Source of the DNA: a bacterium
Lineage (GTDB): Bacteria; Actinomycetota; Acidimicrobiia; Acidimicrobiales; Bin134
Reading direction: 5' to 3'
Length of the DNA: 64,000 nt
Assembly: GCA_028819295.1 (NCBI GenBank)
Contig: JAPPMA010000077.1
Span: 1-64,000, forward strand
The notes beneath the pieces were generated by a model. That model saw only the letters and a program-made list of their open reading frames with translations. It searched no databases and was not told the DNA's origin. The position numbers were made by a program, and so were the translations under genes. This document shows, one piece after another, positions 42,276 through 55,072 of this stretch (its first letter is position 1; each line of letters starts with the position of its first letter).

Positions 42276-42346
42276 GGCCGACACCCTAAACCCCATGTGG
42301 AATGGTCAGCCCGATCCCATACACTGTCAGCGCTGGCCGCTCCGGC

Positions 42347-42432
42347 GGCCACACCTGCGCCGGTGCCCGAGCGGACTAAGGGAGTGGCCTGCAAAGCCAT
42401 GATTCACGGGTTCAAATCCCGTCCGGCGCTCC
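42347..42432 (+). repeat. 86-bp direct repeat, left copy (contains tRNA-Cys)
   Basis: Identical to 54987-55072: ten bases upstream of the tRNA, the tRNA itself and the following CC. Divergence starts immediately on both sides, which defines the repeat ends. Confidence 0.9.
42357..42430 (+). tRNA. tRNA-Cys (GCA), copy 1
   Basis: 74-nt cloverleaf: acceptor GCGCCGG/CCGGCGC, anticodon loop CTGCAAA (GCA), and T arm CGGGTTCAAATCCCG. The next bases are CCATG, so a CCA end is encoded here, unlike in copy 2 and in tRNA-Gly. The A of CCA is the first base of the Nmad2 start codon. Confidence 0.95.
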
Positions 42433-43962: not shown

Positions 43963-44137
43963 CTGGCAGAACAGTCTGAGCGCCGGGTGTCGTGCGGCAA
44001 CTTGGCGTGCGGGATGCCTGGCAAGCATTTCACCTGTCGGCTGCGTTTCCATGCTTAGGTGGAGTCCCCCCCCTCCCCCCCCCCTCTTGGGTGAGTCCTC
44101 GAAAATCGGTTGGGTAGGCTCAGGCCAGAGCAGGTGG

Positions 44138-47314: not shown

Positions 47315-47493
47315 TATTTTGGGCTTGCGGGCAGTAACCGTTGTTTGGCACCCATATGAAGTGTTGCACAGGGGTGCGTATTTGTTGAGCCTTCGCGGAA
47401 ACGTGGGGTGGGGTGGGGGTCCGTTGGCCGGGGTCGGGGCTCTGCTGGGATCGGTGATGTCATTGTCGCCTGTCGAGGAGGGCCCCGATGGGT

Positions 47494-48745
47494 TCAGATG
47501 TTGTGCGGGTGCGGTTGTGTTTGCGCCTGATAAGGGTGCTCGGGGTTGTGTCTGAGCTTCCCCCCCTTTTCGTGGGGAGGTTGGTTGTGAGGATTGGCGG
47601 TGTGGGTCGTCTCGTGTTCTACGGGTGGGACCATTCCGATTGCGGAGTGGAGGCGGTGGTGGTTGTACCAGCCGCAGGCCCGCAGCGTGATTTCTTGGCG
47701 GGCTTGGGCTTTGGTGGCCCGGGCCCGGCGGTCGATGGGCTCGTGCTGGAGTGCGGGGGAAGAACGACTCGGCCGGGGCGTTGTCCGGGGCGTTGCCGGT
47801 CCTTCCGGAGGGTCGGGCGATGCCGAGCCGCCGGCAGGCGGCGGCGAAGGCCCCTGCGGTGTATTGCGGCCCCTTGTCGGAGTGGAAGGCCACGCCGTCG
47901 ATGTTCCCGCCCCGTGTGGCCGCCGCGGTGTCGGTCGCGGCCTTGGCCGGCTCCGCGGTCGGATAGCGGTTCGAGGCGGCGAACCCGGCCATGCGCCGCG
48001 AGCGCAGGTCCAGCACCGTCGCCGAAAACACCGGGCCCTCGGCGGCCTTGACCTCTTCGAAGTCGCCGCACTGCTTCTGGTTGATCCCCGAAGCGCTGAA
48101 GTCCCGCCGCAATAGGCCTGTCGGGGCCGCACCGCCGGGGTTCCGGCCGGTCAGGCCCTTCTTCTTTTTGGGGCGGGCGCACAGCCCCTGGCGGGCCATC
48201 GGCGCCTCCACCGTCTTCTTCGACACCGACACGCCGTCTCGGCGCAGCTGGGCCCGCACCCCGGGCGACCCGCAGGCCCCCTGGGAGCGGTCGAACGCCT
48301 TTTTGACCTGGGCATCGGCCGCCCGACGGCGGACCTGCATCGGCGCCGGCGGCCGGTCGAGGTGCTTGCAGAACGTCGAGGGAGCAACATCCAGCGCCCG
48401 GCAAGACACCGCGTGAGGCACTCCGCGGTCGGCCCTCTGGGATGCGATGAACCCTGCGGCCACCGCGTCGCCCCGCTCACCCAACCGACCACGGATCGCT
48501 TGAGGACATCGCGCTCCATCCCCCGGCTCGGCCACCCTCATGCGGAGCCGGGCCAGCTCGGCCCGCTCGCCTGCCGACAGCCCGCCGGCCCGCCCGGCCC
48601 GGTCCCGGCGCACCCAGTTCCCCAGCGTGCCCTCACACACACCGAGCCCCCGGGCCACATGGGCCACCGCCCGGCCGGCCTCCTCGACGATCCGAACAGC
48701 CCCATCTCGGAACTCCCGGCCGAAATTTCTTCGCAGTCCGGACAT
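47494..48745 (-). pseudogene. Degenerate IS3-family transposase (orfA/orfB)
   Basis: From ATG 48745 the frame encodes an OrfA-like HTH (FRDGAVRIVEEAGRAVAHVA ... CEGTLGNWVRRDRA), then OrfB parts: ALDVAPSTFCKH, the DDE pieces CGDFEEVKA, FHSDKGPQYT and APAESFF. The true C-terminus (ACGWYNHHRLHSAIGMVPP) lies in another frame ending at 47494, and MERDVLKRSV is in a third. At least two frameshifts beyond the usual programmed one therefore disable it. Imperfect inverted repeats around CTTTTCGTGG (near 47567-47580 and 48770-48780) may mark ends. Confidence 0.8.
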
Positions 48746-48798
48746 AACTCCCCCTCATAGAGCATGCCTCCACGAAAAGAGGGGAACCTCACCGGCCC

Positions 48799-48909
48799 TC
48801 AAACGGGCGAACAGAGGGAACCAACAACCTCCTCCAAGTCCTCAGACGAACAGCCCACGGCTTCACCAACCCCCACAACTTCCAAGCCCGCGGCCTGCTG
48901 ATAACCTGA
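48799..48909 (+). pseudogene. C-terminal remnant of an ISL3-family transposase
   Basis: The plus strand encodes SNGRTEGTNNLLQVLRRTAH then GFTNPHNFQARGLLIT and a stop at 48907-48909. SNGxTE...N...GFxNxxNxxxRxLL is the end of ISL3-type DDE transposases. Everything upstream is gone, apparently replaced by the IS3 element. Confidence 0.65.
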
Positions 48910-48940
48910 CCCCCACACCGGAGACAGCAACCCGAACCCC

Positions 48941-49174
48941 ACAAAAACGCGCAGGGCCACCAAACTCTCCACGATTAGGGGGGAAGCTCACCGGGGGTGT
49001 CAATGGAGATTTCAGCACAAAAACGCGCAGGGCCACCAAACTCTCCACGATTAGGGGGGGGAAGCTCACCGGGGGTGTCAATGGAGATTTCAGCACAAAA
49101 ACGCGCAGGGCCACCAAACTCTCCACGATTAGGGGGGGGGGAAGCTCACCGGGGGTGTCAATGGAGATTTCAGC
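48941..49174 (+). repeat. Three tandem leader repeats with G tracts of 6, 8 and 10, ending in the DUF262 start
   Basis: Units 48941-49016 (76 bp), 49017-49094 (78 bp) and 49095-49174 (80 bp) are identical except for a G run of 6, 8 and 10. Each unit ends GGGGGTGTCAATGGAG, that is a ribosome-binding site, an ATG and five codons. Only the third ATG (49161) opens the full gene. The G run lies about 30-20 bases before the ATG. This and the ISL3 remnant account for the 415-bp gap 48746-49160. Confidence 0.9.
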
Positions 49175-51152
49175 CATTTTGAGCCAGATCGAGCAAGGGC
49201 AGTTTGCGCTGCCGGAGTTCCAGCGGGGTTATGTGTGGAGCCGGGAGCAGGTGAGGGGCCTTTTCTCATCGCTATACCGCCGCTACCCGGTGGGCGGCTT
49301 CTTGGTGTGGACGACCCAGCCCAACCGGGATGCAGTGCGGGGCGGGGCGGCGCAGCCGGGTGCGCCGGTCACGCTGTTGTTGGACGGCCAGCAGCGGGCC
49401 ACTTCGTTGTACGGGGTGATACGGGGCCGCCCACCGAAATTCTTCCAAGGCGACGAGAGGGCGTTCAAAAACCTGTATTTCGACGTGGACAAAGAGGTAT
49501 TCGAGTTCTACGGGCCGGTCAAGATGCGCGACAACCCGCATTGGATCTCGGTGACCGACCTGTTCCGCCACGGCCCTCGCGGCATGGTCGCCCAACTCAG
49601 AAAGTGCACCGAGGATACCGAGGCGCTGCTCGACTACCAGCAGCGGCTGACCGACCTCTACACCATTGGCAGCATCGATCTGCACATCGCCCACATCCCC
49701 GGCCATGACCGGCCAATCGACGAGGTGGTCGACATCTTCAACCGTGTCAACTCCGGTGGCACCAAACTGTCGTCCGCAGACTTGGCGCTCGCCAAACTCT
49801 GTGGTGAGGCGCCCCAGTCCCGACAGGAGCTGCGCCGGCTTCTCGCGGGCTGGGAGCAGAGCGGCTATTGCTTCAAGCTGGAATGGCTGTTGCGCGGAGT
49901 CACCGCTGTGGCGACCGGGCAGGCCTCTTTCGGCGCGCTGCGGGATGTCTCGGTCTCTGACTTCTCGACTGCGCTGAAGAAGACGGCGCAGAGCATCGAT
50001 TTCGCATTGAATCTGCTGGCGACCGGCCTGGGCATCGACCACGACCGGGTTCTCGCCGGGAAATACGCGTTCACCTCCCTGGCGCGGCTCGTGTCCAACA
50101 GCGGCGGGACTGTCAATGACCTCGCCGACCAGCACAAGATCCTGTACTGGTATGTCCACAGCTTCTTGTGGGGCCGCTACAGCGGGTCGGCGGAGACGAA
50201 CCTGCGACGCGATCTCGTCGCCTTAGAAGACGGGGGCGTTGAAGGGCTGATCGCCGAGTTGGAGAGGTGGCGGGGAGGCCTTGAGTTGAAGGCCGATGAT
50301 TTCGACTGGTGGAGCGTCGGCGCCCGCTTCTACCCGCTGCTGTACATAATGACCCGCCTCAGCCGGGCTAGGGACTTGGTTAACGGCCTCCCCCTGTCGC
50401 TCAGCATGCACGGCCATCTGAACCAGTTGCACAAGCACCACATTTTCCCCCGGAATCGCCTCTACCGAGAAGAAATGAGCCAGGCGCAGGTCAACGCCCT
50501 GGCCAATTTCTGCTTCCTTACAGCCGGGTCGAACTGGGCGATCAGCGACGACGACCCGGCCTCCTACCTGCACGAGATAGAGCAGCGGAATCCTGGCGTG
50601 CTCGCATCCCAATGGGTACCCCTTGACGAAGCCCTCTGGCAGATTGACCGCTACCCGGAGTTCCTCGCTGCCCGCCGATCCCTGCTCGCTGAAGCCGCGA
50701 ACAGCATCCTCGCCGCCCTCCGGGAAGGTCGACACCCCGCGCCACCTCCGCAAACCGAACTCCCAACACAAGCTCACGCCGCTGCACAAGTCGGCGCGGC
50801 CCGTCCGGCGTGGGACGAAGAGGACGACGGGGACATTCTTGCCTTGCGCCAGCTGGCCGCCGATCTGAGAATCGCCGCGCCGGAAACGCACTGCGAGATT
50901 GCCGACGCCGACACCGGCGAGCCTTTGGCCATGGCTGACATTGCCTGGCCTCAAGGCATCCAACCGGGCCTGACTGAGCCTGTCGCGCTTTTGTTTGACC
51001 CGGATGCTGAGACCGAAGAACGGCTCGGCGAGCTCGGCTACCGCTTCTTCACCACCCCCCGGAGACTGATCTGGCATCTGGAACAACTCCTCGGAATAGA
51101 TATTGACGGAGACCAGATCATCGGCGAGGCAGAACCTTTGCAATCCAGCTGA
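49161..51152 (+). CDS. DUF262-HNH protein (GmrSD/type IV restriction-like)
   Basis: 663 residues. The N-terminal DUF262 domain has FALPEFQRGYVWSREQV and the nucleotide-binding DGQQR motif (LLLDGQQRATSLYG, about residue 77), with FNRVNSGGTKLS. The C-terminal half has a DUF1524-like HNH site, LHKHHIFPRNRLY ... NALANFCFLTAGSNWAIS (about residues 423-460), followed by about 200 residues of unassigned tail. Relatives (GmrSD, BrxU, SspE) cut modified or phosphorothioated DNA during phage defence. The ATG is at the end of the third leader repeat. Confidence 0.88.
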   Translation: MEISAILSQIEQGQFALPEFQRGYVWSREQVRGLFSSLYRRYPVGGFLVWTTQPNRDAVRGGAAQPGAPVTLLLDGQQRATSLYGVIRGRPPKFFQGDERAFKNLYFDVDKEVFEFYGPVKMRDNPHWISVTDLFRHGPRGMVAQLRKCTEDTEALLDYQQRLTDLYTIGSIDLHIAHIPGHDRPIDEVVDIFNRVNSGGTKLSSADLALAKLCGEAPQSRQELRRLLAGWEQSGYCFKLEWLLRGVTAVATGQASFGALRDVSVSDFSTALKKTAQSIDFALNLLATGLGIDHDRVLAGKYAFTSLARLVSNSGGTVNDLADQHKILYWYVHSFLWGRYSGSAETNLRRDLVALEDGGVEGLIAELERWRGGLELKADDFDWWSVGARFYPLLYIMTRLSRARDLVNGLPLSLSMHGHLNQLHKHHIFPRNRLYREEMSQAQVNALANFCFLTAGSNWAISDDDPASYLHEIEQRNPGVLASQWVPLDEALWQIDRYPEFLAARRSLLAEAANSILAALREGRHPAPPPQTELPTQAHAAAQVGAARPAWDEEDDGDILALRQLAADLRIAAPETHCEIADADTGEPLAMADIAWPQGIQPGLTEPVALLFDPDAETEERLGELGYRFFTTPRRLIWHLEQLLGIDIDGDQIIGEAEPLQSS

Positions 51153-53013: not shown

Positions 53014-53031
53014 TCGCCGCTCCCAAAAAAT

Positions 53032-53130
53032 GACAGAGACCGCCGTCAGACGGCGGTCTCGACCCTACCGGCGAAGCGATAGGGGTGGTACAAGAAACCT
53101 ACCACGAGGCAGGTGGGCCATCAACGGTCA
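53032..53130. repeat. 99-bp repeat A with two hairpins
   Basis: About 90% identical to 54825-54923, same orientation. It contains the stem GAGACCGCCGT/ACGGCGGTCTC and a second stem CCCTA/TAGGG. Read on the minus strand, the first stem is followed by a TTTTTT run (53030-53025), so this copy can act as a terminator after the gene ending at 53128. Its other end holds that gene's stop codon. Confidence 0.8.
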
Positions 53131-54756: not shown

Positions 54757-54824
54757 CCCACCATGATGACCCAGCCCACATCAACGCACGCGGCGATTTC
54801 ATGCGTGTGCCGCCTCCAAGAAGA

Positions 54825-54923
54825 GACAGAGACCGCCGTTAGACGGCGGTCTCGACCCTACCGGCGAAGCGATAGGGGTGGTACAAGGAATTTACAACGA
54901 GGCAGGTAGACCATCAATGGTCA
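54825..54923. repeat. 99-bp repeat B with two hairpins
   Basis: Second copy of the 53032-53130 sequence, upstream of the DUF6226 gene and 73 bases before tRNA-Cys copy 2. The main stem is intact; the T run is interrupted here. Copies A and B bracket the DUF6226/ParS-like gene pair as a 1.8-kb cassette. The rest of the 240-bp gap 54757-54996 shows no other signal. Confidence 0.8.
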
Positions 54924-54986
54924 CAGATGCTGAATGCCTCAATTTTCGGTGTGGAAGCTTGAATTCGGTCGGATTGGGCATGCGGA

Positions 54987-55072
54987 GGCCACACCTGCGC
55001 CGGTGCCCGAGCGGACTAAGGGAGTGGCCTGCAAAGCCATGATTCACGGGTTCAAATCCCGTCCGGCGCTCC
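54987..55072 (+). repeat. 86-bp direct repeat, right copy (contains tRNA-Cys)
   Basis: Identical to 42347-42432. It marks the right end of the island; the next gene is chromosomal copCD. Confidence 0.9.
54997..55070 (+). tRNA. tRNA-Cys (GCA), copy 2
   Basis: Identical in all 74 bases to 42357-42430. It is followed by CCC, not CCA, so CCA must be added after transcription. The open frame that runs through it into copCD is not used as coding sequence. Confidence 0.95.

What the first reader, a model, noticed from the sequence alone, without database searches (positions are those of the whole stretch)
48941..49174. Triplicated start region of the DUF262 nuclease with G tracts of 6, 8 and 10
Three tandem copies of the leader, ribosome-binding site and first codons differ only by a G run growing by two each time. 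Lone decoy ATGs and a slippable homopolymer in the leader are what one expects of phase-variable expression of a costly nuclease.
Basis: seen in the sequence. Interest (0 to 1): 0.75.

Follow-up and report, generated by a model that had tools for sequence, protein, structure and literature searches.

The report
Triplicated transposon-end/nuclease-start junction
Three near-identical copies of a short stretch sit at the start of an anti-phage nuclease gene, but the stretch is the junction between leftover transposon ends and the gene's own start, recently duplicated, so whether it acts as a genetic switch is possible but unproven.

Summary
In detail: 48940-49173 holds three tandem units of 76, 78 and 80 nt, identical except for G runs of 6, 8 and 10. 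The reading changes. Each unit is not an evolved leader. It is (i) 19 nt of an ISL3-family terminal repeat, (ii) the last 32 nt of an IS3-family element, including its transposase stop codon and its G run, (iii) 12 nt of native leader with the Shine-Dalgarno, and (iv) the first codons of a single-chain GmrSD/BrxU-like (HEC-05) gene. G6 is the usual state of this IS end across the genus; G8 and G10 occur only here. Fourteen homologues lack the triplication and long G tracts; the closest keeps only the native GGGGGT...ATGGAGATTTCAG. No G-length or copy-number change modelled touches the 663-aa frame, so variation could only alter initiation. Best account: a recent illegitimate tandem duplication across an IS/gene junction, with slippage in an IS-derived G run. 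It is inherently unstable and a possible expression modulator, resembling Mycobacterium promoter/leader repeats, but nothing shows phase variation. Copy number and G lengths rest on a gapped draft assembly and need read-level confirmation. The tRNA-Cys-flanked defence hot spot around the gene is a separate, perhaps more useful, observation.

The parts
48940..49015 (+). repeat unit 1 (76 nt, G6)
49016..49093 (+). repeat unit 2 (78 nt, G8)
49094..49173 (+). repeat unit 3 (80 nt, G10), directly continuous with the DUF262 gene
47387..48958 (+). ISL3-family element: left part 47387-47555, right part 48792-48958 (C-terminus ...NNLLQVLRRTAHGFTNPHNFQARGLLIT*), interior missing; its right terminal repeat CACAAAAACGCGCAGGGCC is the head of every unit
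   Evidence: blastn to copies in the same and related genomes; an intact copy hits DDE_Tnp_ISL3
47553..48791 (-). IS3-family element (HTH_Tnp_1, HTH_21, rve; reading frame broken) lying inside the ISL3 element; ends TGAG...CTCA
48959..48990 (+). terminal 32 nt of an IS3-family element (transposase end ...LHD*, then GGGGGGAAGCTCA); repeated in units 2 and 3 at 49035-49068 and 49113-49148
   Evidence: same terminus at 22 other sites in the genus
49149..49160 (+). native leader CCGGGGGTGTCA with the likely Shine-Dalgarno (GGGGGUG); copied at 48991-49002 and 49069-49080
   Evidence: kept in orthologue L059/L040 as GGGGGTAGTCG-ATGGAGATTTCAG; SD-antiSD duplex -9.9 kcal/mol
49161..51152 (+). single-chain GmrSD / HEC-05 (BrxU-like) nuclease, 663 aa from ATG (GTG 49155 also possible)
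   Evidence: GmrSD_N 8.3e-28, HEC-05 1.4e-42, BrxU 7p9k 2.1e-12; motifs FQR, DGQQR, FNRVN, HHIFP, LANF...N; dN 0.15/dS 1.06 to the orthologue
49003..49182 (+). decoy reading frame from ATG1 (59 aa) and ATG2 (33 aa), out of frame with DUF262, its stop codon ending 22 nt after the A of the DUF262 ATG

Best explanation
An IS3-family element (or one of its small derivatives) inserted 12 nt upstream of the ATG of a GmrSD/BrxU-like gene, sparing only its Shine-Dalgarno. An ISL3-family element and then another IS3-family element landed there, leaving a 32-nt IS3 end. A tandem duplication with almost no microhomology (about one base) then copied the block from the ISL3 terminal repeat to codon 5 of the gene. 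A further duplication gave three units, and the IS-derived G run lengthened from 6 to 8 and 10 by slippage. The gene is still expressed, if at all, from the last start codon. Upstream copies offer decoy starts whose frames overlap the true start. The array is therefore an accidental, intrinsically unstable modulator of translation initiation rather than an evolved ON/OFF switch. Shown: the anatomy, the IS origin, G6 as the usual length, an intact gene under purifying selection, absence in homologues. Inferred: order of events, slippage, any effect on expression.
For: Units match ISL3 right ends (82-97% identity in own genome and several relatives) joined to the IS3 terminus, which occurs at 22 other genus sites: 15 G6, 2 G7, 1 G5, 4 interrupted, none G8 or longer. 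A transposase reading frame ends in that terminus (...NPHNQPLHD*). ISL3 left and right parts flank the IS3 copy. The orthologue (78% aa) has the native SD-ATG only. Junctions are TTTCAG|CACAAAAA twice, against CCC|CACAAAAA on the left and TTTCAG|CCATTTT on the right. The 663-aa frame is untouched in every G/copy combination modelled, while decoy frames change. dN/dS about 0.14.
Against: The steady +2 step (6, 8, 10) is odd for random slippage. IS3 ends also sit 14 nt before another DUF262 homologue (L043) and 8 nt before an ORF in L082, so recurrent, possibly selected, insertion before start codons cannot be ruled out. No strain or read data.
Confidence: 0.62

Rival explanations
1. Genuine phase-variable expression: unit number and G length change at high rate and tune or switch nuclease translation through decoy ORFs and 5'-leader structure, kept by selection because the nuclease is costly.
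For: Perfect repeats and G8/G10 tracts are mutable by nature. Changing G3 from 10 to 8 or 11 fuses the decoy frames to the nuclease, and 9 or 12 prolongs them about 550 nt into it. Precedents in Mycobacterium tuberculosis: one-base insertion in a 7G tract in the espR 5'UTR raises translation (PMC11898584), and dop promoter repeats of 57 bp in 1-3 copies vary within populations (PMC12817950).
Against: The main start is never removed. Predicted opening energy of the start region varies only about 11-13 kcal/mol over three-unit G lengths, without a switch-like pattern. No promoter spacer at the tract. No such leader in 14 homologues. No population data.
Confidence: 0.2
2. Assembly error: the copy number, or the G lengths, are wrong because the repeat was resolved from short reads.
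For: The assembly has 108 contigs, 10-N and 100-N gaps, and poly-G/C runs of 14-35 nt at contig ends and gap edges. Identical stretches of about 76 nt between tracts would collapse for small k-mers. The tidy 6-8-10 series is suspicious.
Against: The unit-to-unit junction needs real reads across it. The array is interior in a 121-kb contig and the 64-kb window has no N at all.
Confidence: 0.18

Closest known systems
Promoter tandem repeats of Mycobacterium tuberculosis (dop, 57-bp unit, 1-3 copies; PMC12817950)
   Same: Tandem copies of a 50-80 nt block at the start of a gene in an actinobacterium; up to three copies
   Different: There, copy number was shown to vary within populations and strains; here one assembled allele. 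Here the unit includes IS ends, SD and first codons, and an internal G tract
espR 5'UTR 7G tract of M. tuberculosis (PMC11898584)
   Same: G homopolymer in a leader, able in principle to alter translation
   Different: There, indels recur in many clinical isolates and the effect was measured; here neither
BrxU / HEC-05, single-chain GmrSD type IV restriction (PDB 7p9k; PMC11411939, PMC4619093)
   Same: DUF262 domain with QR, DGQQR, FxxxN motifs and a C-terminal H...N...N nuclease motif; HEC-05 is the best PADLOC family
   Different: About 665 aa against 587; the C-terminal part has no Pfam DUF1524 match; substrate unknown
IS insertion upstream of genes (IS3 and ISL3 families)
   Same: Nested IS remnants directly upstream of a gene
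   Different: The junction was subsequently triplicated together with the gene start

Membership tests
Phase-variable (contingency) locus by simple or tandem repeats | hypermutable-type repeat positioned to affect expression | tested here: met
   G8/G10 and perfect 76-80 nt units overlap the ribosome-binding and start region
Phase-variable (contingency) locus by simple or tandem repeats | length variation among cells or strains | not testable with these tools
   one genome per species, no reads; no second sequence of this species found
Phase-variable (contingency) locus by simple or tandem repeats | length change switches the gene by frameshift or promoter spacing | tested here: not met
   the 663-aa frame is intact in every combination modelled; no sigma-70-like promoter around the tract. 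Modulation through the leader remains open
GmrSD/BrxU (HEC-05) type IV restriction enzyme | N-terminal DUF262 with QR, DGQQR, FxxxN | tested here: met
   GmrSD_N 8.3e-28; motifs in the translation, definition in PMC4619093
GmrSD/BrxU (HEC-05) type IV restriction enzyme | C-terminal DUF1524 His-Me (HNH) nuclease | tested here: inconclusive
   HHIFP...LANFCFLTAGSN seen, HEC-05 profile covers residues 3-520, but no Pfam DUF1524 hit
GmrSD/BrxU (HEC-05) type IV restriction enzyme | cleaves modified DNA | not testable with these tools
   needs biochemistry
IS3-family terminus (source of the G run) | same end adjoining an IS3-type transposase elsewhere, TG...CA ends | tested here: met
   termini at 22 other sites; several preceded by the transposase C-terminus
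ISL3-family terminus (head of the unit) | same end adjoining an ISL3 transposase elsewhere | tested here: met
   DDE_Tnp_ISL3 2.4e-60 in L062

The most novel reading that the evidence does not exclude
Transposon ends landing just before start codons of defence genes supply ready-made slippable G tracts, and duplication of the IS/start junction turns them into a bet-hedging device that varies translation of a type IV restriction nuclease among cells.
Probability: 0.13. Interest if true: 0.65.

Novelty: new member of a known kind. Interest (0 to 1): 0.33.

Why it matters
If the array really varies, it would be a type IV restriction gene whose translation is tuned by leader repeats of transposon origin, showing how insertion elements can create contingency loci. 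If not, it is a clear example of how IS debris at a gene start can imitate an evolved regulatory repeat, and a caution for reading repeats from draft assemblies.

Tried and rejected
Frameshift switching by the G tract: rejected, as the gene starts after the last tract and stays intact in every case modelled. Promoter-spacer switching: no -35/-10 pair found. Leader conserved as a regulatory module: no triplication or long G tract in 14 homologues. Dispersed copies of the unit in the genome: only these three. Copies in plasmids, viral contigs or phages: none useful. RNA folding across G lengths: small, non-monotonic changes, not convincing. A literature search for a phase-variable GmrSD gave nothing that matched.

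Full report
Observation. The window holds three head-to-tail units at 48940-49173 of 76, 78 and 80 nt, differing only in the G run (6, 8, 10). Long G/C runs are rare in the ordinary parts of this genome (five of 8 or more in about 300 kb; four in the window), so two of them within 100 nt, in otherwise perfect repeats, is not chance.

What the unit is made of. DNA searches of own and 21 congeneric genomes and inspection of copies break the unit into four pieces. (1) CACAAAAACGCGCAGGGCC is the right terminal repeat of an ISL3-family element. Related copies at 82-97% identity end there and then diverge; an intact copy carries an ISL3 transposase. (2) ACCAAACTCTCCACGATTAGGGGGGAAGCTCA is the last 32 nt of an IS3-family element; elsewhere it follows the transposase C-terminus ...NPHNQPLHD and TAG is that stop codon. 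(3) CCGGGGGTGTCA is native leader with the Shine-Dalgarno. (4) ATGGAGATTTCAG is the gene start. The closest homologue (78% aa; Acidimicrobiia MAG JAJEGM010000039, L059) has TTGGGGGTAGTCGATGGAGATTTCAG, i.e. pieces 3 and 4 once, and no such IS end.

The G run. A pattern search over 22 genomes found 22 further copies of the IS3 end: 15 with G6, two G7, one G5, four interrupted, none G8 or longer. So G6 in unit 1 is the usual state and G8/G10 are expansions confined to this array.

Upstream history. The ISL3 element spans 47387-48958, its middle replaced by an IS3-like element (47553-48791, reading frame broken). The native promoter of the nuclease has probably been displaced by IS debris (inference); no sigma-70-like promoter was found in 48700-49300.

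The gene. 49161-51152 (ATG, or GTG 49155) encodes a 663-aa single-chain GmrSD protein, best PADLOC family HEC-05, which PMC11411939 equates with BrxU; the only solved relative by sequence is 7p9k, which is BrxU (own knowledge). dN 0.15 and dS 1.06 against the orthologue indicate purifying selection over that divergence, not necessarily after the IS events.

Consequences. In the present allele ATG1 and ATG2 share a frame; their products (59 and 33 aa) stop just inside the nuclease gene. With G3 of 8 or 11 they fuse in frame to the nuclease; with 9 or 12 they overlap it for about 550 nt. The nuclease frame itself is the same 663 aa in every case modelled. Thus slippage cannot switch the protein off by frameshift; it could only modulate initiation. 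Predicted accessibility of the last start changes little with G length; this is weak evidence either way.

Assembly caution. G000 is a draft of 108 contigs with 10-N and 100-N gaps and long poly-G/C junk at contig ends and gap edges. This looks like a short-read assembly (inference). The 6/8/10 series and the exact copy number should be verified in reads.

Comparison. Tandem promoter repeats with 1-3 copies (dop) and a 7G leader tract (espR) are reported phase-variable features in M. tuberculosis. The present case resembles both in form, but the defining property, variation among cells with an effect, could not be tested.

Surroundings. The gene lies in a 12.6-kb stretch bounded by two direct tRNA-Cys(GCA) genes. 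Relatives G010, G011 and G014 also have two tRNA-Cys copies with other cargo between them; in G010 and G011 this includes type IIG restriction enzymes. This looks like a recurrent defence hot spot.

Noticed in passing
42343-42432 and 54983-55072: Two direct tRNA-Cys(GCA) genes (90-nt repeat, 99% identical) bound a 12.6-kb defence-like cargo; relatives G010:C41, G011:C11 and G014:C101 also have two tRNA-Cys copies with different cargo, including type IIG restriction enzymes in G010 and G011.
   Followed up: partly
L043 (G002:C200), 14 nt upstream of the DUF262 start; L082, 8 nt upstream of an ORF: The same IS3-family end, in the same orientation, sits just before the start of another DUF262 homologue and of another ORF in congeners.
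   Followed up: partly
L080, L083 and other copies of the IS3 end: Some copies look like very short elements (left end closely followed by right end, about 90-110 nt), suggesting MITE-like derivatives of the IS3 family.
   Followed up: no
44066-44084: C8-T-C10 tract about 55-70 nt downstream of the TPR gene of a kinase + TPR pair (PDC-M71-like), another long homopolymer in the same island.
   Followed up: no
G000 contigs C4, C6, C7, C25, C28: Poly-G/poly-C runs of 12-35 nt at contig ends and beside 10-N gaps: likely short-read assembly junk.
   Followed up: partly
53016-53130 and 54809-54923: 115-nt direct repeat, 89% identical, within the island, also found in relatives G004, G010 and G016.
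   Followed up: no
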